A DNA stretch of 64,000 bases, taken from contig NC_090189.1 of assembly GCF_024679245.1 (NCBI RefSeq), forward strand, positions 37,594,889 through 37,658,888, written 5' to 3'. A program made the position numbers and the translations under genes. Of the stretch, positions 3,099 through 59,867 are shown one piece after another. The notes under the pieces are model-generated. The model was not told the DNA's origin. It saw nothing but the letters and a program-made list of their open reading frames with translations, and did not search any database. How positions within the stretch are numbered: the stretch's first letter is position 1; every line of letters starts with the position of its first letter. The stretch comes from Pseudorasbora parva (lineage: Eukaryota; Chordata; Actinopteri; Cypriniformes; Gobionidae).

Positions 3099-3543
3099 TT
3101 ATAATACATTGCGCTATGAAAGCCTTAATAATAGCCTTTATTGTTCTGTCCTATCTATAATATGTTGCTGCCTCATTAAAAAGATGCGCTATACATTTAA
3201 AATAAATGTAATTTCTTAGTAAATAGGCCCTATTTTTATAAATATACTATTTACTTTTTTTTTCATGAATATATTTTGTGTAACATTTTACCAGTTCCCT
3301 TTCAGTCGGTCATGTTCGACGTACGTCGAACTTAGACCTACGAATTGGGATCTGATCTCAGAGACCTATCTACTTCGAGTGTATGAAAACGAGCAAATCG
3401 GAGATTGGCTGTCTCCAATGCAATGATTTTTGATCAATGCAGCAGAGTGCTGCTACTCTGGCTGACGGCTTGGTTGGGGACCTGAGGGTGACGGTCAGGG
3501 CAAACACGATGGGTCAGATGGCGAGCCAGTTCCTCCAGCCGAG

Positions 3544-4236
3544 ATGAAGACAGGGTTCTACAGCCCCTATTTCATCGTGCCCAAGAAAGGGGGTGGGCTA
3601 CGACCAATCTTGGACCTGCGTGTCCTGAATCAGGCCCTGCACAAGCTCCCGTTCCGGGCATTGGCCTCCATCAAGAGGGTAAGGGACCTGCATGCACTTT
3701 CGGTCAACGAATCGTGCATAGAGTTCGGGCCTGGTAACTCCCCGCCCGGATACCCCGCCCGGATACGTGCCCAAGGTCCCCACCACTCCCTTTCGGGATC
3801 AGGTGGTGAACTGCAAGCGCTGCTTTCGGAGGAGGCAGACCCAGCCCTGGCTTTATTGTGTCTGGTCCGCGCTCTTTGCGCTTACATTGACCGGACTCAA
3901 AGCTTTCGGACCTCAGAGCAACTCTTCGTCTGTTACGGAGGCCAGCAGAAGGGAAAGGCTGTCTCCAAGCAGAGGTTAGCCCACTGGACAGTGGATGCTA
4001 TAGTCTTGGCTTACCAGTCCCAAGACGTGCCTTGCCCGTTCGGGTTGCGAGCACACTCCACAAGGAGTGTAGCATCCTACTGGGCGCTGGCTCAAGGCGC
4101 CTCGCTGACAGACATTTGTAGAGCTGCGAGCTGGGCAACACCTAACACGTTTGCTAGATTCTATAGCCTCCGTGTAGAGCCGGTATCTCCTGCATTCTTG
4201 CCCCTAGTGGCCAGTAGGGCTAAGTGCCCGTTCTAA
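3544..4236 (+). pseudogene. RT-start / tyrosine recombinase fusion ORF of DIRS-B (230 aa)
   Basis: Residues 1-36 match the start of the DIRS RT domain (GFYSPYFIVPKK, then LRPILDLRVLNQAL). From about residue 40 the protein is tyrosine recombinase: IKRVRDLHAL holds the first catalytic Arg, RAHSTRS gives the HxxR box, and RFYSL gives the nucleophile Tyr. A deletion of about 2 kb relative to DIRS-A joined the two without breaking the frame. The core-binding N-terminal domain of the recombinase is lost, so normal activity is doubtful although the catalytic residues remain. The ATG at 3544 is the first in the frame. It is called a pseudogene because it is a deletion product, but the frame is fully open. 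Confidence 0.8.
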
Positions 4237-21038: not shown

Positions 21039-21914
21039 AGAGGTGTAACGGTACAGATTGCTCACGGTTTGATTTATATCACGATTTTAGGTTAAAGATT
21101 TCAGTACGGTTTGGTATTTGCTTTGTTCAGGGGAAAAGGGACTACTGTCAAATGAAAATAAAGAAAATAAGAACAAATAACTTAAATACAAGCAGCAGCA
21201 CAAATAAATACTATTGAGCAAAGATACTAATAAAACAAACAATGTTTTTCAGGTAGGTCTAACATTAGTTTTTAGGTAAAATAACTGCATATTTATCTGT
21301 TTAAATTAAAAATCAATCCTTATTAAACTTACAAAAGCTATTCAATCAAGAGCAGTGAGTTTTGTCTTTATCTTTTGTTTTACATTAAACAGACAGCAGT
21401 AAAGGCTACTGTCCCTTTAAGACCTAACGCAAGGACAGTCGTCGTATTTTTTTGTATAAAGTTCACTTAAGGCATATTCAGACTATGTCTTCTTGGATAC
21501 TAATCAAGATGGACATGTTAACGTACTTTTTGTGTGAGTTTGTCCGTTCAAGCGCTTGAAAGATAATTCAATATTTGTGCGCTGTGAGACATTTGCGTTC
21601 TCTCGGATGAGTGCTCAGAGATATATCTTATCAAAGTGTGCGCGAGTTCTCACTCACGTCTTCTGGCTCTTCACCTGGGTGATGGCGGCAAAAGTGGTCA
21701 TATTCAGACATGCAGCAGCACTCGCATGCAATGAACAATTTACAAAGAGAGACCGCTTTGCCCACTTTTTTCTTTTATTAGCGCTGATGTTGTAGTAGTG
21801 TATCACTGAGACACCAGCACATGTATCCATCAACAGAAACATACATAAAGCATTATGTTCAAGTTATAACCCATATTAAAGATGCGTCATCAGATGTGAG
21901 CTGAACCGCGGTAT
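21039..21914 (+). mobile_element. hAT-like fragment (GGTGTAACGGTACA end)
   Basis: A TAGAGGTGTAACGGTACAG end resembles hAT termini of the TAGGGGTGTAACGGT group. The block 21304-21430 (AATCCTTATTAAA, then AGAGCAGTGAG, then CTGTCCCTTTAAGA) is shared with the elements at 16473 and 24076. The right end is lost where DIRS-C begins. Confidence 0.5.
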
Positions 21915-22912
21915 TTAAATGTGGAAGCAGACATCCTGTTGAGGCAGTGGCCGAGGCCCCGGGAATGGAGACTCTACGCCAAGGTGGTGGAGCTCCTCTG
22001 GGAGATCTTTGACAGAGCAGAAGTAGATCTGTTTGCGTCATAAGAGAATGCTCATTGTCACCTTTGGTTCTCCCTAACTCCTCCAGCTCCATTGGGACTG
22101 GATGCTATGTACGAATATTGTAAGACCTGTTATACTGCAGGCCTTTTGTCCTCCTCCCTTTCGGACATCAGACCCGGACACTCTTAATCTGCTTTGCCCT
22201 CTTCCGGCTTTAGATGCCTATGTCCACAGAGCTGTCCTGTGGAGAAAGGCAGAACAGTTGTTTGTGTGCTTTGGTTCACCCTCAAGGGGGTGCCCTGCAT
22301 CTAAGCAGAGAATGAACAAGTGGGTGTCTGAGGCCATTTCACTTGCTTATGAGGCGACCGACCAGCCTTCTCCTTTGGCTGTACGGGCGCACTCTACTAG
22401 GAGTGTGACTGCTTCTAAAGCTTTACTAGCAGGGGCCTCCCTGCAAGAAGTTTGTAATGCGGCAGGTTGGTCCTTGCTGCACACTTTTGTGAGGTTGTAT
22501 GACCTTGATCTTAACTCTACTTCGGGGCAAGGGTGCTCATCCCGTAGACAATGTCACGGACGGGCATCTTGCTCATATGGAGACATGGGGATTTTCATTC
22601 CCACAGCACTGACGCAGCTCGAGTTCCCATGATAGGGAACGTCTCAGTTACATATGTAACCTTAGTTCCCTGAATAGGGAACGAGACGCTGCATCACCCG
22701 GCCATACTCCCTGCATGCCCGCATTTCGTCTTGCTTCGGCATTTGAGGAGCTACTGCAGTTTATACTTCCTGGTGTATGACGTCACCCGCTTATGACACT
22801 CCATCACTCCATTGGACAGATTACATACGTGCTTCACGACGCAATCACGCAGAGGCGTTCCCACAGCGGTGACTCAGCGTCTCGTTCCCTACTCAAGGAA
22901 CTGCAAAGAATC
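21915..22912 (+). mobile_element. DIRS-C: DIRS relic, RNase H end + recombinase + 3' terminus
   Basis: It starts inside the RNase H region (VEADILLRQ at about 21918, WRLYAKVVELLW, EVDLFAS then a stop) and runs to about 22105. It then jumps to the recombinase at about 22130. The 3' part is intact. It has an internal complementary region (about 22620-22700, with GTTACATATGTAAC and CCCTGAATAGGGAACGAGACG) and the terminal repeat to 22912 with TGACGTCA at 22778-22785. It is the same family as DIRS-E. The left terminus and most of gag and RT are missing. Confidence 0.8.
22102..22632 (+). pseudogene. Tyrosine recombinase C-terminal half of DIRS-C
   Basis: The frame covers the catalytic half of the recombinase: QLFVCFGSP, the HxxR box in RAHSTRS, ALLAGASLQEVCNAAGW and the Tyr in FVRLYDLDL. 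The first catalytic Arg region is lost to the deletion. It runs past the normal end into the 3' terminal repeat. The first residues from 22102 are RNase H-side sequence in a foreign frame. It is non-functional. Confidence 0.75.
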
Positions 22913-25779: not shown

Positions 25780-25887
25780 AGGGGAATGGTGCAGCAAGTT
25801 GCCACAGAAAACGGTGCTCCCGGTGGGGGCGAGCATGCAGGAAGCAATTATTTCTACAAGGAGGCTATAAAATCTAGCGACCGTCTT

Positions 25888-26256
25888 CTATGTTGCCCAG
25901 CCCGCAGCTCTACATATATCTGTCAGCGAGGCACCATGTGCCAGTGTCCAGGAAGAAGCTTCTCCTCTCATGGAGTAAGCCGTCAACCCGAGAGGGCAAG
26001 GCACGCCTTGGACCTGGTAAGCCAAAGTGATGGTATCCACTATCCGGTGGGCCATCCTGCTTGGAGACAGCCTTTCCCTTCTGCTGGCCTCCGTAACAGA
26101 CGTAGATCTGATCTGAGGTCCTGAAGCTTTGTGGTCAGTCCACGTATACTCGCAGAGCGTATGTTTATAGGACTTTGTACTGATAGGCCTGTCCCTCGAA
26201 CACAAACCGTAGAAAGGGTCTGTGTCAAGGGAGAATCGAGACATGAAAGTAAGCAT
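25888..26256 (-). pseudogene. RT-recombinase fusion remnant of DIRS-D
   Basis: The upstream part is RT sequence in a shifted frame. From about residue 28 it is recombinase (ALAYQ-like segment AYQVQGVPCPLGL, then GASLTDICRAAGWAT). The catalytic His of HxxR is replaced by Tyr and the frame ends before the nucleophile Tyr. Stops lie on both sides. It is an independent RT-to-recombinase junction compared with DIRS-B. Confidence 0.65.
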
Positions 26257-26579
26257 CCTTCAGGTCGATTGCTACAAACTAATCTTGAGGACGGATGCTT
26301 TCAAAAATGAGTTTCTGCATTAACATCTTGAACGGCAGCCTATGTAGGGACCGATTTAAGAATCCAAGCCAAGATTGGCCATAACCCACCGCTTTTCTAG
26401 GGTATGATGAAGTAAGGGCTGTAGAACTGGCTAGATTGCGAAAAATCTTCTTTTGGTGAGACATTTGGGAACAGAAAGAAGAAGAAACAAAAGATTTTCA
26501 AAAGATTTTCTCTGGGGTAGAGAGAGGTGGCTTCACCGTCTCCCAAAGAGCGGATGTCCAAACCTCCGGGTCGCCTGAC

Positions 26580-35886: not shown

Positions 35887-38800
35887 ATGGAAGATTTTTA
35901 TTCCGCCACAAAATAAAATATTTTGCGACTTTTTATCTCACAATTCTGACTCTTTTCTTTTTGCAAAATAGCATGATATAAAGTCAGAATTGTGAGAAAT
36001 AAAGTTAGAATTGTGAGATACAAAGTCAGAATTGTGAGAAATAAAGTTAGAATTGTGAGATACAAAGTCAGAATTGTGAGAAATAAAGTTAGAATTGTGA
36101 GATACAAAGTCAGAATTGTGTGATATAAAGTCAGAATTGCGAGATATAAAGTCAGTATTGTGTGAAATAAAGTTAGAATTGTGAGATACAAAGTCAGAAT
36201 TGTGTGATATAAAGTCAGAATTGTGTGATATAAAGTCAGAATTGTGAGATATAAAGTCAGAATTGTGTGATATAAAGTCAGAATTGCAAGATATAAAGTC
36301 AGAATTGCGAGATACAAAGTCAGAATTGCGAGATACAAAGTCAGAATTCTGAGAAATAAAGTCAGAATTGCGAGATACAAAGTCAGAATTGTGAGAAATA
36401 AAGTCAGAATTGCGAGATACAAAGTCAGAATTCTGAGAAATAAAGTCAGAATTGCGAGATAAAAAGTCAGAATTGTGTGATATAAAGTCAGTATTGTGTG
36501 ATAAAAAGTCAGAATTGTGTGATATAAAGTCAGAATTGTGTGATATAAAGTCAGAATTGTGTGATATAAAGTCAGTATTGTGTGATATAAAGTCAGAATT
36601 GTGAGATATAAAGTCAGAATTGCGAGATATAAAGTCAGAATTGTGAGATATAAAGTCAGAATTGCGAGATATAAAGTCAGAATTGTGTGATATAAAGTCA
36701 GAATTGTGTGATATAAAGTCAGAATTGTGAGATATAAAGTCAGAATTGCGTGATATAAAGTCAGAATTGTGAGATATAAAGTCAGAATTGTGTGATATAA
36801 AGTCAGAATTGTGAGATATAAAGTCAGAATTGCGTGATATAAAGTCAGAATTGCGATATAAAGCCAGAATTGTGTGATATAAAGTCAGAATTGTGTGATA
36901 TAAAGTCAGAATTGTGTGATATAAAGTCAGAATTGTGTGATATAAAGTCAGTATTGTGTGATATAAAGTCAGAATTGTGTGATATAAAGTCAGAATTGCG
37001 ATATAAAGCCAGAATTGTGTGATATAAAGTCAGAATTGTGTGATATAAAGTCAGAATTGCGATATAAAGCCAGAATTGTGTGATATAAAGTCAGAATTGT
37101 GTGATATAAAGTCAGAATTGTGTGATATAAAGTCAGAATTGTGTGATATAAAGTCAGAATTGTGAGATATAAAGTCAGAATTGCGAGATATAAAGTCAGA
37201 ATTGCGAGATATGAAGTCAGAATTGCGAGATATAAAGTCAGAATTGCGATATAAAGCCAGAATCGTGTGATATAAAGTCAGAATTGTGTGATATAAAGTC
37301 AGAATTGCGTGATATAAAGTCAGAATCGTGTGATATAAAGTCAGAATTGTGAGATATAAAGTCAGAATTGTGAAAGTCAGAATTGCGATATACAAGGTCA
37401 GAATTGCGAGATACAAAGTCAGAATTCTGCGAAATAAAGTCAGAATTGCGAGATACAAAGTCAGAATTCTGAGAAATAAAGTCAGAATTGCGAGTTAAAA
37501 AGTCAGAATTGTGTGATATAAAGTCAGTATTGTGTGATAAAAAGTCAGAATTGTGTGATATAAAGTCAGAATTGTGTGATATAAAGTCAGAATTGTGTGA
37601 TATAAAGTCAGTATTGTGTGATATAAAGTCAGAATTGTGAGATATAAAGTCAGAATTGCGAGATATAAAGTCAGAATTGTGAGATATAAAGTCAGAATTG
37701 CGAGATATAAAATCAGAATTGTGTGATATAAAGTCAGAATTGTGTGATATAAAGTCAGAATTGTGAGATATAAAGTCAGAATTGCGTGATATAAAGTCAG
37801 TATTGTGTGATAAAAAGTCAGAATTGTGTGATATAAAGTCAGAATTGTGTGATATAAAGTCAGAATTGCGATATAAAGCCAGAATTGTGTGATATAAAGT
37901 CAGAATTGTGTGATATAAAGTCAGAATTGTGTGATAGTCAGAATTGTTAGATATAAAGTCAGAATTGTGAGATATAAAGTCAGAATTGTGTGATATAAAG
38001 TCAGAATTGCGTGATATAAAGTCAGAATTGTGAGATATAAAGTCAGAATTGTGAGATATAAAGTCAGAATTGTGAGATATAAAGTCAGAATTGCGAGATA
38101 TAAAGTCAGAATTGTGTGATATAAAGTCAGAATTGTGTGATATAAAGTCAGAATTGCGTGATATAAAGTCAGAATTGTGTGATATAAAGTCAGAATTGTG
38201 AGATTTAAAGTCAGAATTGCGAGATATAAAGTCAGACTTGTGTGATATAAAGTCAGAATTGTGTAATATAAAGTCAGAATTGAGAGATATAAAGTCAGAA
38301 TTGAGTGATATAAAGTCAGAATTGTGTAATATAAAGTCAGAATTGAGTGATATAAAGTCAGAATTGAGTGATATAAAGTCAGAATTGTGTGATATAAAGT
38401 CAAAATTGAGTGATATAAAGTCAGAATTGTGTGATATAAAGTCAGAATTGAGTGATATAAAGTCAGAATTGTGTAATATAAAGTCAGAATTGAGTGATAT
38501 AAAGTCAGAATTGAGTGATATAAAGTCAGAATTGTGTGATATAAAGTCAGAATTGAGTGATATAAAGTCAGAATTGTGTGATATAAAGTCAGAATTGTGT
38601 GATATAAAGTCAGAATTGTGTAATATAAAGTCAGAATTGAGTGATATAAAGTCAGAATTGAGTGATATAAAGTCAGAACTGTGTAATATAAAGTCAGAAT
38701 TGTGTGATATAAAGTCAGAATTGTGTGATATAAAGTCAGAATTGAGTGATATAAAGTCAGAATTGAGTGATATAAAGTCAGAATTGAGTGATATAAAGTC

Positions 38801-39579
38801 AGAACTGTGTAATATAAAGTCAGAATTGTGTGATATAAAGTCAGAATTGTGTGATATAAAGTCAGAATTGAGTGATATAAAGTCAGAATTGAGTGATATA
38901 AAGTCAGAATTGAGTGATATAAAGTCAGAATTGTGTGATATAAAGTCAGAATTGAGTGATATAAAGTCAGAATTGAGTGATATAAAGTCAGAATTGTGTG
39001 ATATAAAGTCAGAATTGTGTGATATAAAGTCAGAATTGTGTGATATAAAGTCAGAATTGTGTGATATAAAGTCAGAATTGTGTAATATAAAGTCAGAATT
39101 GAGTGATATAAAGTCAGAATTGAGTGATATAAAGTCAGAACTGTGTAATATAAAGTCAGAATTGTGTGATATAAAGTCAGAATTGTGTGATATAAAGTCA
39201 GAATTGTGTAATATAAAGTCAGAATTGAGTGATATAAAGTCAGAATTGAGTGATATAAAGTCAGAATTGAGTGATATAAAGTCAGAATTGTGTAATATAA
39301 AGTCAGAATTGTGTGATATAAAGTCAGAATTGTGTGATATAAAGTCAGAATTGTGAGATATAAAGTCAGAATTGTGTAATATAAAGTCAGAATTGAGAGA
39401 TATAAAGTCAGAATTGAGTGATATAAAGTCAGAATTGAGTGATATAAAGTCAGAATTGTGAGATATTAAGTCAGAATTCTTATTATTTTTTAAATATTTA
39501 AATATTTATTTTTATATTTTAAAAGTTTATATTTTATTTTCATGAATGTTTTATTCTGTGGCAGAAACAAGCTTCCATA
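35887..39579. mobile_element. Inverted-ended element expanded by a minisatellite
   Basis: TATGGAAG followed by a CCGCCACAAAATAAAA block (35887-35919) is matched inverted at the other side by TTTTATTCTGTGGCAGAA then CTTCCATA (39549-39579), with a few mismatches and a 2-nt length difference. A TA dinucleotide sits at each outer edge. Nearly everything between is the 21-bp tandem array. The simplest reading is a TA-target MITE whose interior expanded. Confidence 0.65.
35974..39478 (+). repeat. 21-bp minisatellite, about 3.5 kb (roughly 165 units)
   Basis: The unit is AAAGTCAGAATTGTGTGATAT, with variants at the middle positions (TGTGAGAT, TGCGAGAT, TGAGTGAT, TGTGTAAT, CTGTGTAAT). Some short units (GCGATATAAAGCC) shift the phase. 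The 5' half is rich in GAGAT and GCGAT types and the 3' half in GAGTGAT and GTAAT types. Because the unit is 21 bp, heptapeptide open frames arise on both strands (DIKSELC on plus, ILTLYHT on minus). These are by-products, not genes. One inverted unit lies just outside at 35936-35957. Confidence 0.97.
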
Positions 39580-39810
39580 GTTTCATGTTTAGATTTCATA
39601 CAAACATTCAGATTTCAGATCTGAAAGTGTCACTGGATTCATTGGGATTGATGAAAATGAGTGCATGTAAACAAACCTACTGTGTAGGCCTGTCGCGATA
39701 GTCGATAAATCAATTAATCGTACGATTAAAAAAATGAGGTCGATAATTTTTCCGGCCGCAATAATTGCCATTTGAATAGTTTTTTGTTCCCTTATCGAGG
39801 GAACTTCCCA

Positions 39811-39964
39811 CTGCGTCGAAACGCTTTGGGGATGCTCCCTAAGCATCAGCGAATCTGAAGCCTGAATAAACACTAGTCCAATCCGATTGGTCGTGCGTGA
39901 TGACGTCATTGTGACGGCGTACCCGGAAGTATAAAAGGGGAGCCGGCGCATAATGGCGGCAGTT
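39811..39964 (+). repeat. DIRS-A left inverted terminal repeat
   Basis: These 154 bp are exactly inverted at 44928-45081. The repeat includes the TGACGTCA site and TATA box noted separately, both pointing inward. Confidence 0.95.
39901..39938 (+). promoter_or_regulatory. Inward promoter of DIRS-A: CRE-like site and TATA box
   Basis: TGACGTCA (39901-39908) is the palindromic CREB/ATF consensus, and TATAAAAGG begins at 39930. The Gag start codon lies about 130 bp downstream. The inverted copy (TGACGTCA at 44984-44991, TATA about 44954-44962) points inward from the right end, so antisense transcription is possible. Function is inferred from consensus only. Confidence 0.6.
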
Positions 39965-40062
39965 ATTGCTCTTCAGCATAGCGCTCTCTGTTTGGTCTGT
40001 CTATTTACTGTTGTCTGTCCAGTTGCGAGTGTGTGTGTGAGTGAAAACTTTATAGTAAAAGT

Positions 40063-41541
40063 ATGGAAGGAAAGAGCGGATTTAGACAGTGTGTGCATCC
40101 GTGTCCCCGCTTCATCTCGGGATCGGATACACACCTGTTATGTGTGCAGTGTCTGGGTGTGCAGCACGCTCGGGCGGCTCTCGAGGGAGCCGCCTGTGAG
40201 CACTGTGAGCGGCTGACACTCAGGCTGCTCCGCTCTAGGCTGGCCGTGTTCGATGAGACCGGCCAGCCTCGTGAGCCCCAGGGTTCTGGACCCGCGGTCG
40301 CTGAGGCGTCGCGGCGTCGCAGATCATGGGGCTCACAGCGGGATCTGTCCGAGGGCTTTGGGACTGCTGCGGCACTTTCCCAATCCTCCTCGGACAGTTC
40401 CGATGATCTTCCTCCCCGTGTGGAAGCCCGCTTTGCGGCTTCTTCCCCCGGGGCGGAGGGTCCGATGCTCGTTCTCTCCGGTTCTGAGGAGCCGGAGGGC
40501 GCGGGCATCGGGGCGGGGGATGAGGTTTTTCCATCGCCTCATCCGCCCGCCCAGGAGGAATTGGTCGAGGTGTTGACCCGGGCTGTGGCTAAACTCAACA
40601 TTGAGTGGCCACAGGAGGAACAGGAAGTTCGGCCACCCAGTAGGCTGGATGACCGGTTCCTCGCACACCGGGTCCAAACACCGCGCCGGGGTTTGCCTTT
40701 TTTCCCCGATCTGCACACCGAGGTGTGTAGATCGTGGAGGAAGCCCTATTCCTCGCGTGTCTCTAATCCCCCACTGTTGGACTATTCCAACGTTCTGGGG
40801 GCACGCGAGGCGGGCTATGGGGCGATGCCGCGGGTGGAGGATGCTCTCGCGAGCTATCTTTCGCCCGAATCGGCATCGTCCCTTAAAACCCCGGTGCTGC
40901 CCACCAAACCCTGTCGGGACACCTCAGGGCTGGTGGGCAAGGCTTATATGGCGGCTGGGCGGGCTGGTAGTGCGCTGCACACTCTGTCGATCTTGCAGGC
41001 CTACCAGGCTGACCTTCTAAAAGAGCTGGATGAGGGCGAGGGTCCCTCTCCGGAGGACGTACTGGAACTCAGGAAGGTCGCGGATTTGTCTCTCCGTGTT
41101 ACCAAGGAGACGGCCCGTGCCATCGGCCGCTCCATGGCAGCTATGGTGACAACGGAGAGACATCTCTGGCTGAATCTGTCGGGGATAAAGGAGAAGGACA
41201 GATCCTTCCTCCTGGACTCCCCGATCTCGCCTTCTGGTCTGTTTGGGGACGCGGTTAACTCCGTCGTCTCCAGACACCAGGAGGCGAAGAGACAGTCAGC
41301 GGCCTTCCAGCAGTACCTCCCTCGCCGCTCTAAGCCCGGGAAGGCTGGCCCTAGCGGGCAGCCTCAGCCGCCGACCAGCTCCTCCTCGCATCGTCAGATG
41401 CAAAAAGAGAGCGTCGCCTCTAGAGCCCCTCCTCCGGGAGCTTGGCAACAGAGGCGGCGCGCTCAACAGCAGCCTTCCGCTCCGAAGGGCGATCTGAGGA
41501 ACGTCCTTCAGGCGCGAAAGGCTGCCGCAAAGAAGTCCTAG
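40063..41541 (+). CDS. DIRS-A ORF1, Gag-like protein (492 aa)
   Basis: This is the presumed structural protein that packages the retrotransposon RNA. The N-terminus has paired cysteines (C10-x3-C14, C27-x2-C30, C45-x2-C48, with His between), a possible zinc-binding fold. Residues 60-180 are acidic, Ser/Pro-rich and probably disordered. SRLDDRFLA (about residue 193) and the Ala/Leu-rich helical stretch from SGLVGKAYMAAGRAG to RSMAAMVTTERHLWLNL (about 290-385) are the conserved Gag core, also recognisable in the relics. The C-terminus is basic (ending KAAAKKS). The ATG at 40063 is chosen because it precedes the Cys pairs. An upstream frame from 39953 is short. The end overlaps ORF2 in the -1 frame. 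Confidence 0.85.
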   Translation: MEGKSGFRQCVHPCPRFISGSDTHLLCVQCLGVQHARAALEGAACEHCERLTLRLLRSRLAVFDETGQPREPQGSGPAVAEASRRRRSWGSQRDLSEGFGTAAALSQSSSDSSDDLPPRVEARFAASSPGAEGPMLVLSGSEEPEGAGIGAGDEVFPSPHPPAQEELVEVLTRAVAKLNIEWPQEEQEVRPPSRLDDRFLAHRVQTPRRGLPFFPDLHTEVCRSWRKPYSSRVSNPPLLDYSNVLGAREAGYGAMPRVEDALASYLSPESASSLKTPVLPTKPCRDTSGLVGKAYMAAGRAGSALHTLSILQAYQADLLKELDEGEGPSPEDVLELRKVADLSLRVTKETARAIGRSMAAMVTTERHLWLNLSGIKEKDRSFLLDSPISPSGLFGDAVNSVVSRHQEAKRQSAAFQQYLPRRSKPGKAGPSGQPQPPTSSSSHRQMQKESVASRAPPPGAWQQRRRAQQQPSAPKGDLRNVLQARKAAAKKS

Positions 41542-43709
41542 CCTCGGCAGGACTTCTCAGGGCGGTCCCTCCCGCGAGGGGGCAACCGAGGTTGCTTCCT
41601 TCGCGGCGCCCTGGGGAAATCGATGTGGTAATCCCGCCGTCTACGACGCTTCGGGCCACATCGATTTCCCGCGAACGCACGCTGCTCCAGCCGCCTCTGG
41701 AAAGACCTGCGGCTGGGCAGCTGGCGCGTCCGCACACAGAGACTCGTCCCCAACCACTTCCTGCCGGGCAACCGCTTCAGGGGGTCGGGGACGAGGCTCG
41801 TGTAACACCCGACGCCAGCCTCGAGAGGCTGGTTCCCTTAGTAGATTATCTCGGCGCATGGAAATGCCTTCCGAGTGTATCCACATGGGTCCTGCGCATT
41901 GTAGAAAATGGGTACAGACTGCAGTTCGGTCGGCCTCCCCCTGGGTTCAGGGGGGTGACCTGGACTACAGTGGTACCAGAGCGGGGTCGGGTAATGGAAC
42001 TAGAAGTAAAGACCTTACTGGCAAAGGGGGCCATAGAACATGTTCCTCCGCCAGAGAGGGAGTCCGGCTTCTACAGCCGGTACTTTATAGTTCCCAAAAA
42101 GGATGGAGGGTTGCGTCCGATTATAGATCTAAGGGATTTGAATCGGTCTCTAAGGAGGTTCAGATTCAAAATGCTCACTATCCCCATGATCGTGAGTCAG
42201 ATCCAGTCCCAGGACTGGTTCGTCACGATAGATCTGAAGGACGCATACTTTCATATCTCCATCCTTCCATGTCACAGGAAGTTCCTGAGGTTCGCTTTCG
42301 GGGGCGAAGCGTACCAATATCGAGTTCTTCCCTTCGGCCTAGCCCTCTCCCCACGCACATTCACAAAGTGCATGGATGCAGCCCTGGCTCCTATGAGGCT
42401 TCAGGGCATCCGTGTACTGAATTATATCGACGACTGGCTCATACTGGCCCAGTCGTACGATATGGCGGTTCGGCATCGAGATGTCGTTCTAGCCCACATA
42501 AAGTGCTTGGGGCTGAGACTCAACACGAACAAGAGTGTGTTGACGCCGTCCCAGAGGACTACGTTCCTAGGGGTAGTATGGGATTCGACGACGATGCGGG
42601 CACAATTGTCTCCCGCGCGCGTCGAGACCATACTGGCGATGGTCTCAGGAATAAGGCTAGGCCACACCATCACTGTGAAGCACTTTCAGAGAGTGCTGGG
42701 GCACATGGCAGCAGCGTCCAACGTGATACCGTTCGGCCTGCTACACATGAGACCCCTCCAGTGGTGGTTGAAAACCAAGGGGTTTTCCCCCAGAGGGAAT
42801 CCTTTTCGTATGATCAGGGTAACGCGCAGATGCCTTCGTTCCCTAGTCATATGGAAGAAACCTTGGTTTCTGTCCCAGGGACCAGTGTTGGGAGCGTCCT
42901 GTTGCCGGAAATCCGTTTCAACAGACGCCTCCCTCACTGGTTGGGGCGCGGTCATGGACGGCCGCTTTGCGAGGGGCCCATGGGAGGGCCGTCATTCCTC
43001 CTGGCACATAAATTGCCTGGAGATGATGGCGGTCTACAAAGCTCTCAGGAGTTTTTTCCCGGACCTCCGCGGCCAACATGTCCTGGTGCGGACAGACAAT
43101 ACGGCTGTCGTAGCGTACCTCAATCGCCAGGGAGGGGTAAGATCGCGCCCTCTGTGCAGATTGGCGCATCTAATCCTCCTGTGGTCCCAGGGGAAACTGT
43201 TGTCCATCAGGGCAATGTATGTCCCGGGGGTTCAAAATCAGGGAGCAGACATCCTGTCGAGGCAGGGGCTGAGGCCCGGGGAGTGGCGGCTCCACCCCGA
43301 AGTGGTGGAGGCCATATGCGAGAGGTTCGGCCCAGTGGAAGTGGATCTGTTTGCGTCTCAAGAGACGTCCCACTGTCCACTGTGGTTCTCCCTCACGCAT
43401 CCAGCCCCGTTGGGGTTGGATGCCATGGTGCAGACGTGGCCGAGGCTGCGTCTGTACGCATTTCCCCCGATTGCTCTGCTCCCGGGAGTCCTGGAGAGGG
43501 TCCGTCGGCAGGGGGTCAGTCTACTTCTGGTAGCACCCCGTTGGCCGACGCGAGTTTGGTTCTCGGATATCATAGCCCTGCTGGCAGGTCATCCATGGCA
43601 GATTCCTCTGAGGAGGGATCTCCTGTCTCAGGCGGCGGGGTCGATTTTCCACCCCCGGCCGGAGATATGGAACCTTTGGGTTTGGCCCCTGAGGGGGCCA
43701 GGTACCTAG
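41424..43709 (+). CDS. DIRS-A ORF2, reverse transcriptase / RNase H / C-terminal domain (about 761 codons)
   Basis: This frame copies element RNA into DNA. The RT begins about 42060 (GFYSRYFIVPKKDGG). The catalytic Asps are in VTIDLKDAYFH (codon 42231) and YIDDW (codons 42429 and 42432). RNase H residues are visible as STDAS (Asp codon 42924), CLEMMAV (Glu 43020), RTDNTAV (Asp 43095) and GADILSRQG (Asp 43248). The last about 125 residues (VEVDLFAS... PRWP... WPLRG) occupy the place of the methyltransferase-like domain described in DIRS elements. I cannot confirm its motif. The frame opens at 41424, with no ATG until about 41995 (RVMELE), so initiation is by a non-AUG codon, frameshifting from ORF1 or splicing. 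It overlaps ORF1 by 118 bp and ORF3 by 115 bp. Confidence 0.9.
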   Translation, partial: SPSSGSLATEAARSTAAFRSEGRSEERPSGAKGCRKEVLASAGLLRAVPPARGQPRLLPSRRPGEIDVVIPPSTTLRATSISRERTLLQPPLERPAAGQLARPHTETRPQPLPAGQPLQGVGDEARVTPDASLERLVPLVDYLGAWKCLPSVSTWVLRIVENGYRLQFGRPPPGFRGVTWTTVVPERGRVMELEVKTLLAKGAIEHVPPPERESGFYSRYFIVPKKDGGLRPIIDLRDLNRSLRRFRFKMLTIPMIVSQIQSQDWFVTIDLKDAYFHISILPCHRKFLRFAFGGEAYQYRVLPFGLALSPRTFTKCMDAALAPMRLQGIRVLNYIDDWLILAQSYDMAVRHRDVVLAHIKCLGLRLNTNKSVLTPSQRTTFLGVVWDSTTMRAQLSPARVETILAMVSGIRLGHTITVKHFQRVLGHMAAASNVIPFGLLHMRPLQWWLKTKGFSPRGNPFRMIRVTRRCLRSLVIWKKPWFLSQGPVLGASCCRKSVSTDASLTGWGAVMDGRFARGPWEGRHSSWHINCLEMMAVYKALRSFFPDLRGQHVLVRTDNTAVVAYLNRQGGVRSRPLCRLAHLILLWSQGKLLSIRAMYVPGVQNQGADILSRQGLRPGEWRLHPEVVEAICERFGPVEVDLFASQETSHCPLWFSLTHPAPLGLDAMVQTWPRLRLYAFPPIALLPGVLERVRRQGVSLLLVAPRWPTRVWFSDIIALLAGHPWQIPLRRDLLSQAAGSIFHPRPEIWNLWVWPLRGPGT
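41858..43594 (+). other. Long open overlap upstream of ORF3, in another frame of RT
   Basis: The recombinase frame is free of stops for 579 codons across the RT/RNase H region. The predicted residues are Ser, Gly, Pro, Arg and His rich, with no domain I recognise. It may be an N-terminal extension of the recombinase, or a by-product of high G+C and codon bias in RT. See findings. Confidence 0.4.
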
Positions 43710-44713
43710 AGGCTGGCCTGTCGGCAGAGGTGGTAGAGACCTTACTCAGCTCCAGGGCTCCGTCCACAAGGAGACTGTACAGCCTCAAGTGGAATGTATT
43801 TTCCACTTGGTGCAGGAGGCGTGAGGAGGACCCAGTTAACTGCCCAGTGGCTTCAGTGCTGGAGTTCCTCCAAGATCGCTTCTCTGCGGGCCTAACCCCG
43901 TCCACACTCAAGGTGTACGTGGCTGCCATTGCGGCTTTCCACACTCCTCTGGGTGATGGGCCTTTGGGTAGGCACCAGCTGGTTGTACAGTTCCTCCGTG
44001 GGGCTCGGAGGATGAGGCCTGTGGCTCAGTCCAGAGTTCCAACCTGGGACCTGGCAGTGGTTCTCGAGGGATTGGCTGAGGCCCCCTTCGAGCCACTAGA
44101 GTCAGCAGAACCTAAGAATCTGACCCTTAAGGTGGCCTTTCTACTCGCCATTACCTCTCTAAGGAGAGTAGGGGATCTCCAGGCCTTGGCAGTAACGCCG
44201 ACTTGCCTGGAGTTTGCCCCGGGTGGAGTAAAGGCCATCTTGCACCCTAGGCCGGGCTATGTGCCCAAGGTCCCATCAAGGGTGGTCAGGTCTTTGGTTC
44301 TGCAGGCATTTCATCCTCCGCCTCACGTGACGGCGGAAGAGGGGAGGCTTCACCTACTCTGCCCGGTCAGGGCACTCAGGGTGTATCTGGCGAAGTCCGC
44401 ACAGTGGAGGAGATCGCAACAATTGTTGGTGTGTTTTGGCTCACCCAAGAAGGGGTTGCCTGCGTCTACCCAGACTATCAGTAACTGGATAGTCCAGGCA
44501 ATAACCATGGCTTACCAGGTGCGCAGTTTGCCTTCACCTGTAGCCGTGAGGGCACATTCCACCAGAGGCATGGCCTCTTCGGTGGCCCTCCTTTCTGGGG
44601 TCCCCCTGCAGGATATCTGCGAGGCGGCGGGGTGGGCTACTCCACACACTTTTATCAGGTTTTATAGCCTGGATCTCCCTGCGACGCCTGGCGCGAGGGT
44701 GCTCCAACCCTAG
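43595..44713 (+). CDS. DIRS-A ORF3, tyrosine recombinase (372 aa from this ATG)
   Basis: This protein integrates the circular DNA copy in place of an integrase. The N-terminal core-binding domain starts around SSRAPSTRRLYSLKWNVFSTWC. Catalytic residues are the Arg in TSLRRVGDL (R190/R191), the HxxR box in RAHSTRG (H321, R324) and the nucleophile Tyr in RFYSLDL (Y357). The length is normal for a YR protein. The ATG at 43595 has a good context (A at -3? no: ATCC before, G at +4) and lies just before the conserved region. The same frame stays open upstream to 41858, giving 951 codons, so a longer product cannot be excluded. It overlaps the end of ORF2. Confidence 0.88.
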   Translation: MADSSEEGSPVSGGGVDFPPPAGDMEPLGLAPEGARYLEAGLSAEVVETLLSSRAPSTRRLYSLKWNVFSTWCRRREEDPVNCPVASVLEFLQDRFSAGLTPSTLKVYVAAIAAFHTPLGDGPLGRHQLVVQFLRGARRMRPVAQSRVPTWDLAVVLEGLAEAPFEPLESAEPKNLTLKVAFLLAITSLRRVGDLQALAVTPTCLEFAPGGVKAILHPRPGYVPKVPSRVVRSLVLQAFHPPPHVTAEEGRLHLLCPVRALRVYLAKSAQWRRSQQLLVCFGSPKKGLPASTQTISNWIVQAITMAYQVRSLPSPVAVRAHSTRGMASSVALLSGVPLQDICEAAGWATPHTFIRFYSLDLPATPGARVLQP

Positions 44714-44781
44714 TTGTGCCCGGTTTCCGGCTTCACACTAGGACAGGCGCTACCCTCGGTGTGGCCTAGTGGGTACTCGTT

Positions 44782-44882
44782 CCCCAAAGCGTTTCGACGC
44801 AGTGGGAAGTTCCCTCGATAAGGGAACGGCTCGGGTTATGTATATAACCCTTGTTCCCTGAGAGGGAACGAGCACTGCGTCG
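44782..44882 (+). repeat. DIRS-A internal complementary region (ICR)
   Basis: 44782-44827 is the exact reverse complement of the left terminus (39786-39831). 44828-44882 is the exact reverse complement of the right terminus (45074-45128). In the DIRS model this region templates joining of the two ends into a circle. The junction AAC|GGC contains AAC, the complement of the GTT at both insertion boundaries. Confidence 0.95.
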
Positions 44883-44927
44883 TACCGCCACACCTCGGCA
44901 CGCCTGGAGCGCATGCTTCAGAGCAAG

Positions 44928-45081
44928 AACTGCCGCCATTATGCGCCGGCTCCCCTTTTATACTTCCGGGTACGCCGTCACAATGACGTCATCACGCACG
45001 ACCAATCGGATTGGACTAGTGTTTATTCAGGCTTCAGATTCGCTGATGCTTAGGGAGCATCCCCAAAGCGTTTCGACGCAG
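44928..45081 (-). repeat. DIRS-A right inverted terminal repeat
   Basis: Exact inverse of 39811-39964. The 47 bp beyond it (to 45128) are unique to the right end and are mirrored only in the ICR. Confidence 0.95.
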
Positions 45082-46147
45082 TGCTCGTTCCCTCTCAGGG
45101 AACAAGGGTTATATACATAACCCGAGCCGTTTTCCTCGTCTCTCTCATTGACTGCGCGCACCTCGTCCGTTTGGGGAGGTGTTTATACTCGACGCGCAGA
45201 CCGGGTGCGGCATGATGAGACATCATTCTCGGCCAGCAGATTCGTCTGGAACTCGTGACTCTTCAGTTGCGGAGCCACACGCAAAGTTACGAAATTTGAC
45301 GTGCACAACGCCAACGAAATGGGGTCTCGCGCACTCCGCGTCAACATGATTTTTGCCGCCCGCATCCTCGCGCTCGAACGTCATGAATAAACGAGGCTTA
45401 AAGCTACACTGAAGTTTGATAAACGCAAATTAATTCTTCAGTTCAATCTTTGTGTGCTAAAAAGGCACATAAGTTCCTGTAGAGATAGCAACACATTCTC
45501 CTTTTTTTGCCAAATAAATGAAAAGCATGTCATGTCAATGTCTTCTCTCTTGCTGTATCAAAATATAACTTTCCTCAGAGATGGTCAAGTTCAGTTTGTG
45601 CATGATTAGGCTATGATATAATATTTTTTTTTAATACTGTGTCCTAAATTGTGGATAATTATTTTATCATATGCTGAAGTACATTTCTGGATAAAAACAA
45701 ACAAAAAAAAAACAAGAACCATACAGAACGGAAAAATGTGACCCTAAAACCGTGATACGAGCTGAACTGTGGGTTTTGTGAACCGTGTCGCCCCTAATAT
45801 GCTCCTAAAACACAATCATTCGTTGCAGTTTTCATCCATTTTATTTATTTATTGTGGTACTTATTTAAATGCATTTTTTAAACAGACTTGAGTCCATGCT
45901 TTTATTGTTTTTGGTTGTTTTGTTCATTTATTGTGGTTATTTAAAATGTTTTCCATTTTTAGTGTTAAATAGTCTTTAGAAATTAACGTTTATTGATCTT
46001 TGAAAAGGTGTACCTGCATTTTTATGCCATTATCATTATTTTAGATGAAAATGGTCTCAGAACGACAATATCATAGTTTATCGCAACAATTTCTTGGCCA
46101 ATTTATCGTCCAGCAAAATTTGTTATCGTGCCAGGCCTACTACTGTG

Positions 46148-52428: not shown

Positions 52429-54371
<1,943 letters not shown>

Positions 54372-57927: not shown

Positions 57928-58314
57928 TTACATACGTAACCGTGTCGTTCCCGTTTCAAGGGAACTCGAGCTGCAGTGGGCCGTCTCTGACAACGCGAAC
58001 AGATCTACTTCTGCCCTGCCGAAGTTCTCCCACAGGAGCTCCACCACCTCGGTGTGGAGTCTCCATTCCCCGGGTCTCGGCCCCTGTCTCAGCAGGCTGT
58101 CTGCTTCCACATACCGTGGGATGTAAACTGCTCTGATCAAACTCAGTTTCCCTTGGGCCCACAGGAGGAGCTGGCGAGCCAGCTTGTATAACGGGGGCGA
58201 CCTCAACCCCCCCTGATGGTTTATGTAGGAGACCACCAATGTGTTGTCAGAGCGAACTAACACATGATGTCGAACGATGATGGTCCTGCCACTGGCCCTG
58301 GGCTGAGCGACCAC
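57928..58314 (-). pseudogene. RNase H and following domain of DIRS-E
   Basis: VRSDNTLVVSYINHQGG and EADSLLRQGPRPGEWRLH match the RNase H end, and EVDLFALSETAHC matches the next domain. It stops at the deletion junction that removed the rest of ORF2 and the whole recombinase. Confidence 0.75.
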
Positions 58315-58904
58315 TCATGACCGCTCCCCAACCGGTGAGGGAAGAATCCGTCGTTAGAATGACTCGACGACAAGGAACTCCCAACACTGGGCCTTGAACC
58401 AAGAATCAAGGCTCTCTCTATATCATCAACACACGAAGGTAACGCTGCGTGACCTTGATAACACAAAAAAGATTTCCCCTCTGTGGAAAATCCCTTGGTC
58501 TTGAGGCACCAATGCAACGGCCTCATGTACAACATGGGGCTAGGAATCACGTTGGACGTTGCTGCCATCAGATCCAACAGTCTCTGATACTGTTTGACAG
58601 TAAGTGGTTGATCTAGTTTACCCCTTTGACTGCTGAGAGAATCGACCCCACATGAGGCTCTGATAGGCAGGCCCGCATGGTGGTCGAATCCCACACAACC
58701 CCAAGATATGTAGTTCTCTGAGTTGACAAAAGAACACTCTTCTTGGGGTTCAAGCTCAGCCCCAGCTTCTCGATGTTGAACCGTTAACTGCGCTGAATGC
58801 GCTAAAATCAACCAATCATCGATGTAGTTGAGAATTTGGATCCCCTGCATATGCAGAAGAACCAGAGCTGCGTCTACACACTTTGTGAAGGTGCTGGGTG
58901 ACAA
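58257..58904 (-). pseudogene. RT palm segment of DIRS-E
   Basis: SPSTFTKCVDAAL and LNYIDDWLILAHS carry the catalytic YIDD of RT. Downstream the frame changes into shadow sequence and returns at QYQRLLDLMAATSNVIP. The copy therefore carries at least two compensating frame changes. Confidence 0.75.
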
Positions 58905-59136
58905 ACCTAGACCGAACGGAAGAACCCGATAACCTCAAGAACTTCCTGTGTTGTGGAAGGATGGATACATGGAAATATGCATTGTTTAGATCTATTGTTA
59001 CAAACCAGTCCTCGGACTGATCTGTTTGAGTGTAAGCATCTTGAAACTGAGTTTCGCTACTGCTCGATTGAGAATGCGCAGATCTAAAATGGGCCGCAGC
59101 CCTCCATCCTTCTTTGGCACAATGATGTACTGGCTG

Positions 59137-59538
59137 TTAAACCCTCTCTATAGCCCCCTTTTGCAAAAGAGTCTGTACTTCTTGAGACATAACCAGAACC
59201 TGCTCGGGGGCCACCACTGTGGGCAGAACCCTGTTGAAACTGGGTGGACGACACCTGAACTGGATGGCGTACCCCTTTCTTATAATACTCAGGACCCAAC
59301 AAGATATATTTGGAAGATTCTCCCACTCTGCCAGAAATTCTACTAAGAGTACCAGCTTCTTGAGGCTGGCCTCTGATGTACTCTGCACAGCAGGTGCAGT
59401 GAACTGGCAGGGAACAACTGGCCCGACTGCACTATAACCCTCCTCGGAGGGAGCGAGCCATCCTCGAATGACTCCCGAGGGCTCTCCACGCCCTGGCATT
59501 GCGGCGGGGTTAGCAGATCGACACTTTGAGGGCACCAA
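59137..59538 (-). pseudogene. RT N-terminal segment of DIRS-E
   Basis: LKKLVLLVEFLAEWENLPNI and the WVLSIIRKGYAIQFRCRPP region align with the segment before the RT palm in DIRS-A (LERLVPLVDYLGAWKCLPSV). It ends at QKGAIERV, beyond which the frame is lost. Confidence 0.75.
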
Positions 59539-59867
59539 AGGGAGACGGGCACTGTATGCTGAGGTGAACGTTGCCTGCCTCCGGAGGGGACCGCCCTCAC
59601 GATCCTGACCCCAATTGCGTCAGGATCTCTTCGGCGCAGCCTTCGTAGAGATAATGATAATCCTCAGATCCGTCTTACCCTTCTAAGGCTGCGCCCGAGA
59701 GCGTCGTCCCCTGCCCCACCCCTTTTGTGAGGGAGTACAGGTGGCGACGCTGCGGTGACGCAGCTCAAGTTCCCTTGAAATGGGAACAACAAAAACAATA
59801 ACTAGCCATTTTAGTCATTACTTTTTTGTGGTGGGGCCAGTAAAAAAAATAATCACTGGCCTGACCT

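What the first reader, a model, noticed from the sequence alone, without database searches (positions are those of the whole stretch)
39786..45128. Structurally complete, probably young DIRS retrotransposon with exact ICR logic
The 101-bp internal region equals rc(left 46 bp) joined to rc(right 55 bp) with no mismatch seen. The 154-bp inverted repeats are identical by eye, and all three frames are open with catalytic residues present. Complete, intact DIRS copies are far rarer than relics. This one could be active.
Basis: partly seen in the sequence, partly recalled or inferred. Interest (0 to 1): 0.75.

Follow-up and report, generated by a model that had tools for sequence, protein, structure and literature searches.

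The report
Young, complete fish DIRS1 retrotransposon family
This is a complete jumping gene of a known kind (DIRS1-like) in a minnow-like fish, copied so recently that many insertions elsewhere in the genome are letter-for-letter identical, and its copies show how it inserts and hint at an unusual way of translating its enzymes.

Summary
Window 39786-45131 holds a complete DIRS1-like tyrosine-recombinase retrotransposon. Its inverted repeats are identical over 156 nt. Its internal complementary region (ICR) is an exact 102-nt match to the two ends, overlapping in AAC. Gag, pol and recombinase frames are open.

It is young. Of 40 copies fetched from the window's own 1.23-Gb fish genome (Pseudorasbora parva, inferred from a contig length), 36 are full length. 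14 of these equal the window copy over all 5,346 bp, and 32 have all three frames open. Two unoccupied sites show one GTT where the element has GTT at each end. The right trinucleotide deviates in 3 of 37 copies, the left in none. One copy carries the same one-base insertion in left repeat, ICR and right repeat. All this fits the published circle model.

In kind it is known: the anatomy matches published fish DIRS1 elements closely. New here is evidence that the pol/recombinase overlap (736 codons) is kept free of stops (0 seen, about 20 expected), with no conserved start codon. Entry by recoding at the gag stop is a testable, unproven hypothesis.

The parts
39786..39788 (+). left terminal trinucleotide GTT
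   Evidence: GTT in 37 of 37 copies with both termini, window included
39786..39832 (+). left terminus complementary to the left part of the ICR (47 nt)
   Evidence: exact reverse complement of 44781-44827
39809..39964 (+). left inverted terminal repeat, conserved part, 156 nt; TATAAAA at 39930
   Evidence: exact reverse complement of 44928-45083; TATAAAA
40063..41541 (+). ORF1, gag-like, 492 aa, ends TCC TAG C
   Evidence: no Pfam family; 474 homologous proteins reported, best 120 listed, the named ones mostly cypriniform fish; stop context the same in 39 of 40 copies
41424..43709 (+). pol frame (RT, RNase H, methyltransferase-like), 761 codons, no ATG before 41994
   Evidence: RVT_1 3.7e-28, RT_RNaseH 6.4e-6; alignment A1; residues; ATG
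41498..44713 (+). recombinase (YR) frame, open 1071 codons; 736 codons overlap pol
   Evidence: R 44165, K 44267, H 44555, R 44564, Y 44663
41536..41542 (+). gag stop context UCC-UAG-C, candidate recoding site
   Evidence: same in 39 of 40 copies; a +1 shift here enters the YR frame (sequence); function inferred
44781..44882 (+). internal complementary region, 102 nt, AAC circle junction at 44825-44827
   Evidence: concerted indel with both ITRs in L046
44928..45083 (-). right inverted terminal repeat, conserved part
45084..45128 (+). right terminal tip (divergent ITR plus right extension)
   Evidence: complementary to the right part of the ICR, not to the left end on the ITR diagonal
45129..45131 (+). 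right terminal trinucleotide GTT, apparently contributed by the target
   Evidence: GTT 34, GGT 2, GAT 1 of 37 copies; two empty sites with GTT

Best explanation
It is an autonomous-looking DIRS1-like retrotransposon from a family that has amplified very recently in this fish genome. Inferred cycle (DIRS1 model, PMC3266345): transcription from the inverted repeat (TATAAAA at 39930), reverse transcription, and use of the ICR as a template that pairs with both ends to make a circle with one GTT/AAC junction. Shown here: the ICR is exact; changes in the repeats are concerted; the ends are constant across different insertion sites; each of two unoccupied sites has a single GTT; the right trinucleotide can keep a non-GTT sequence while the left never does in the copies seen. 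So the recombinase most likely recombines the circle's GTT with a GTT target, preferring GTT-T-T-C, without a target-site duplication. Inferred: the recombinase is made as an extension of Gag, by a change of frame or readthrough at the gag stop, through a long second frame inside pol.
For: Anatomy exact and equal in kind to fish GaDIRS1 (GTT/GTT/AAC, conserved ITR 148, ICR 46-56, long ORF overlap). 14 of 36 full-length copies identical over 5,346 bp, at 14 sites on 10 contigs, and 18 of 36 without a substitution. 32 of 36 with gag 492, pol 761 and YR 1071 codons open. Flanks differ, ends constant. Empty sites: the L043 site is found unoccupied in a related repeat beside L047, and the L040 insertion lies in a 31-bp tandem array whose intact units are empty sites; both read one GTT at the junction. 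Concerted change: L046 has the same one-base insertion in left ITR, ICR and right ITR; four copies (L028, L029, L036, L040) share a paired insertion in both ITRs. Apart from the right trinucleotide, only 2 substituted sites lie in about 515 nt of ends, ITRs and ICR, of 90 in the element (P 0.007). Overlap frame: 0 stops, 16.6 expected over 41858-43706 (P 6e-9) and 19.8 over 41498-43706 (P 2e-10); gag control 24 observed, 20 expected.
Against: No expression, protein, circle or polymorphism data. The copies come from one assembly; identical repeats can be artefacts of assembly. I fetched the 32 other loci with an identical recombinase plus the 8 next-best ones, so the sample is biased to young copies. 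In the four copies with the paired ITR insertion the ICR did not follow at its inner edge, so they fail the 102-nt test. The recombinase fold could not be modelled and sequence models match it weakly.
Confidence: 0.94

Rival explanations
1. The copy is structurally complete but dead or only mobilised in trans; other copies do the work.
For: A rearranged derivative lacking the RT core but with exact ITR and ICR (L026, 5,236 bp) was seen; by my count 24 of the 108 rows, L026 included, have its 745-codon open frame, so trans-mobilisation may occur (only L026 was read as DNA). Gag to pol is -1 here and no -1 slippery heptamer of the form X XXY YYZ lies in 41424-41541.
Against: All three frames are open, and SNPs among copies point to constraint: YR-only region 24 synonymous, 5 not, where about 26% synonymous is expected. 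The window copy equals 14 others base for base, so it equals a recent source sequence.
Confidence: 0.15
2. The long pol/YR overlap is a by-product of G+C-rich codon usage, and the recombinase starts at an internal AUG near its own domain.
For: The overlap-encoded peptide is poorly conserved: eight fish relatives 40-73% in the blocks from 41858 to 43706 against 61-88% in the YR block. SNPs in its frame are N 21, S 10, near neutral. The window frame has 14 Met codons, and the distant element L003 has five.
Against: Stop depletion P 6e-9 with matched codon usage, all three stop types absent, no depletion in gag or in the non-overlapping YR part. The same in three distant elements picked by pol similarity, 0 seen, 15-18 expected each. 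L001 has no Met in its whole 994-codon frame and L002 one. Pol-synonymous SNPs are fewer in the overlap than elsewhere (P 0.006, post hoc).
Confidence: 0.15
3. It is another tyrosine-recombinase element (Ngaro, PAT or Crypton) or a Ty3/Gypsy element.
For: RT resembles Ty3 RT.
Against: Inverted, not split direct, repeats; ICR present; conserved region after RNase H; recombinase residues at the 3' end.
Confidence: 0.01

Closest known systems
GaDIRS1 and GaDIRS2 (stickleback), DIRS1-like superfamily, PMC3266345 Table 3
   Same: GTT ends, AAC junction, conserved ITR 148/144 (here 156), ICR 46-56/38-57 (here 47-58), long ORF overlap, length 5,322/5,782 (here 5,346)
   Different: different host and family; numbers compared from the table only, no sequence of GaDIRS1 was available; divergent ITR and right extension were not measured here by the authors' rules
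Unnamed DIRS-like gag, pol and YR proteins of cypriniform fish in public proteomes
   Same: gag up to 75%, pol up to 77-78%, whole YR frame up to 76% identity
   Different: below 80% for gag, pol and whole YR frame (YR block alone up to 88%), so a different family; annotated names (Ty3 Gag-Pol and others) are misleading
DIRS-1 of Dictyostelium (founder)
   Same: three ORFs, pol/YR overlap, inverted terminal repeats, circular intermediate (PMC5633606 passages)
   Different: TTA ends and 304-nt conserved ITR for DIRS1-2 in Table 3
Ornithine decarboxylase antizyme +1 frameshift site UCC-UGA (recalled; an analogy only)
   Same: Ser codon UCC directly before the stop; +1 shift enters a downstream frame
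   Different: UAG instead of UGA in this family; no frameshifting was measured

Membership tests
DIRS1-like (DIRS order) | inverted terminal repeats | tested here: met
   156 nt identical
DIRS1-like (DIRS order) | internal complementary region made of the complements of both ends, overlapping in a 3-bp circle junction | tested here: met
   102 nt exact, AAC; exact in 32 of 36 other full-length copies if the right trinucleotide is set aside, 30 of 36 if not
DIRS1-like (DIRS order) | RT and RNase H of the Ty3-related kind | tested here: met
DIRS1-like (DIRS order) | methyltransferase-like region after RNase H | tested here: inconclusive
   region conserved with relatives including the invariant block around F674-P676, but no family model matched it; the motif name is recalled
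DIRS1-like (DIRS order) | tyrosine recombinase with R, H-x-x-R, Y | tested here: met
   residues invariant in 14-row alignment A2; weak Pfam and Cre matches
DIRS1-like (DIRS order) | no target-site duplication; insertion at a sequence equal to the circle junction | tested here: met
   two empty sites with one GTT, right trinucleotide variants; tested on sister copies, not at the window site itself
DIRS1-like (DIRS order) | circular DNA intermediate | not testable with these tools
   needs junction reads or PCR
Ngaro / PAT | split direct repeats | tested here: not met
   of four direct-repeat families one is the flanking 21-bp array, one (24 nt) is part of ICR and ITR, two are 21-24-nt pairs at 79-86%

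The most novel reading that the evidence does not exclude
The gag stop codon of DIRS1-like elements is a multi-way recoding site. Termination gives Gag, one recoding event gives Gag-Pol, and another gives a Gag-recombinase fusion read through a second reading frame of more than 600 codons inside pol. In the window family the site is UCC-UAG-C and a +1 shift gives the recombinase frame. In the 59.6-kb relic and three distant elements gag and recombinase share a frame separated by a single UGA-C, and a +1 shift gives pol. This would explain the puzzling long ORF overlap of DIRS elements.
Probability: 0.35. Interest if true: 0.7.

Novelty: new member of a known kind. Interest (0 to 1): 0.5.

Why it matters
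It is a recent, complete, multi-copy DIRS1 family in a vertebrate, with empty sites, a target preference and concerted changes of ends and ICR: a natural system in which the proposed circle-and-recombinase mechanism can be checked. The overlap result makes an old oddity of these elements, why recombinase and pol share DNA in two frames, directly testable with a small reporter.

Full report
WHAT IS THERE. One search compared the ends base by base. The element occupies 39786-45131 (5,346 bp with GTT at both ends). Conserved inverted repeats: 156 nt identical. Internal complementary region: 102 nt exact, the complements of the left 47 and right 58 nt overlapping in AAC. Gag, pol and recombinase frames are open and the expected residues are in place.

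HOST AND COPIES. The window lies in a 1.23-Gb genome of 79 contigs. Contig C17 is 45,115,010 bp, exactly the longest contig given for a Pseudorasbora parva protein (P0189), so I infer this species (Gobionidae). The recombinase gave 108 scored matches out of 14,501 first-look candidates, 33 of them (window included) at full score over 380 aa. Pol gave 59 scored matches out of 21,981 candidates, 26 at full score (window included) and 58 of 59 without an internal stop. These are lower bounds, as the tool scores only the best.

AGE. I fetched the 32 other loci with an identical recombinase and the 8 next best. 36 of 40 have both termini (exact 30-nt matches) about 5.3 kb apart. 14 of 36 are identical to the window copy over 5,346 bp, on 10 contigs; one more (L034) differs only in the right trinucleotide; 18 of 36 have no substitution. 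The rest carry 1 to 46. 32 of 36 have gag 492, pol 761 and recombinase 1071 codons open. Among 37 pairs of 250-bp flanks only one pair of loci shares sequence at E 1e-5, so these are separate insertions and not segmental duplicates. At a neutral rate of a few per billion sites per year (recalled) one difference in 5.3 kb is tens of thousands of years, so many insertions are very recent. The sample is biased to similar copies.

INSERTION MECHANISM. Left trinucleotide GTT in 37 of 37, right GTT 34, GGT 2, GAT 1. A duplication would make both sides equal, so the right one seems to be the target's own. Next to it T is found in 31 of 37, T in 31 of 37 and C or T in 28 of 37. Two unoccupied sites were found by comparing flanks. 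The L043 site exists empty in a related repeat beside L047 (...TGGTGA-GTT-TCCAGACC...). L040 lies in a 31-bp tandem array whose intact units read ...GAGTTA-GTT-ATATAGG. Both hold one GTT. This is what the published model predicts (PMC3266345). The window site itself was not found empty.

CONCERTED CHANGE OF THE REPEATS. Substitutions are few in ends, ITRs and ICR: 2 sites besides the right trinucleotide in about 515 nt, of 90 in the element (P 0.007). Indels are more telling. L046 carries the same one-base insertion in left ITR, ICR and right ITR, and still passes the ICR test. Four copies (L028, L029, L036, L040) share a paired insertion in both ITRs; the ICR did not follow, and the place is at its inner edge. 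So the three repeats are copied from one another, as the template model requires, with the left ICR edge as the limit. This rests on one copy for the three-way change and on one shared event for the two-way change.

THE OVERLAP. The recombinase frame is open from 41498, 736 codons inside pol. Shuffling synonymous pol codons (2,000 shuffles) gives 16 (sd 3.1, minimum 6) stops in that frame over 616 codons, where none is seen. Position-wise the probability of none is 6e-9, or 2e-10 from 41498. The third frame shows 44 (38 expected), and gag, in the same relative frame, 24 (20 expected). Three distant elements found by pol similarity (L001-L003; RT 34-36% identical; eukaryote-like contigs filed under a bacterial MAG) also show 0 where 15-18 are expected. 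A fourth, decayed contig (L004) shows 2 where 8.8, 2 where 4.5 and 0 where 2.5 are expected in three segments. Eight fish proteins of this frame were found by searching with the frame itself, so their openness is not independent evidence. The peptide itself is little conserved and SNPs in its frame look near neutral (N 21, S 10, stops 0), while in the same 31 SNPs pol has S 18, N 13. Pol-synonymous SNPs are fewer per base in the overlap than synonymous SNPs elsewhere (P 0.006, post hoc). The frame seems to have to be readable more than it has to encode a particular sequence.

HOW THE FRAME MAY BE ENTERED. No conserved AUG; L001 has no Met in 994 codons, L002 one, L003 five. In L002 and L003 gag and recombinase are in one frame, separated by a single TGA followed by C. 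In L001 the gag C-terminus and recombinase frame are related the same way, although its upstream gag lies in another frame. The fish relic at 59.6 kb reads TCC TGA C at the gag end, and its zero frame continues into recombinase-frame peptide while +1 is pol (peptides matched to frames by eye). Four fish proteins (P0028, P0046, P0047, P0158) run from gag into the recombinase frame with Trp where the stop is, and close relatives of them (P0192, P0195) end in ...KRS. Of the 120 listed gag relatives, 59 had a recognisable C-terminus by my pattern; 35 of 59 end in Ser and 6 in Pro. In the window family the stop is TCC TAG C, same in 39 of 40 copies; there +1 gives the recombinase frame, pol is -1, and no -1 slippery heptamer was found before the stop. 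By hand inference from its overlapping peptide, one Chanodichthys protein (P0017) shows the window's frame relation and another from that species (P0014) the relic's. So the frame relation varies among families, which weakens a single simple rule. RNA structure gives no support. I hold recoding at the gag stop at 0.35.

WHAT IS KNOWN. The superfamily, its ends, ICR, circle junction and the frequent pol/YR overlap are published. PMC3266345: abstract and the sections Background, In-depth characterization and Identification read, plus passages. Passages only: PMC9210276, PMC5633606, PMC5941688, PMC3783388, PMC6681497, PMC2685390, PMC5009743, PMC9341512. On recoding in DIRS, the listings (14 of 14; 1 of 1; 1 of 1; 10 of 435 shown) showed no title about it; [quoted passage not shown] Subscription papers are not held. 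In one search none of the ten papers shown (of 326) names P. parva.

VERDICT. A new family of a known kind, complete and very young. The specialist interest lies in the empty sites, the concerted repeats, the burst and the testable overlap question.

Noticed in passing
window 3523-4191 (+), 21906-22527 (+), 25861-26438 (-), 57973-59766 (-): Four decayed relics of other DIRS-like elements lie in the same window; the last keeps a gag end with TCC TGA C.
   Followed up: partly
L026 426-5661 (in G000 C1:24223594-24229594): A 5,236-bp rearranged derivative with exact ends, ITR and ICR but no RT core; 24 of 108 rows (my count, L026 included) share its 745-codon recombinase frame, suggesting a non-autonomous family mobilised in trans.
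   Followed up: partly
window 35974-39478: A 168-copy array of a 21-bp repeat ends 307 bp upstream of the element; part of it is open as a repetitive DIKSEL frame.
   Followed up: no
L001-L003 (NZ_JASJAV010000045, 52, 47): Three near-complete DIRS-like elements, presumably eukaryotic, sit in a Breoghania MAG of the GTDB species collection: probable contamination.
   Followed up: partly
L005 (NZ_CP087956.1): A 5,332-bp circular record called a Wolbachia plasmid carries retropepsin, RT and RNase H genes and looks like a circle of a host LTR element.
   Followed up: no
L025: A copy with no substitution but a 48-nt deletion beginning at 40155 of the window numbering.
   Followed up: no
window 53002-53154 (-): UnaL2 LINE 3' element next to a tRNA-like match, probably a SINE/LINE tail.
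   Followed up: no
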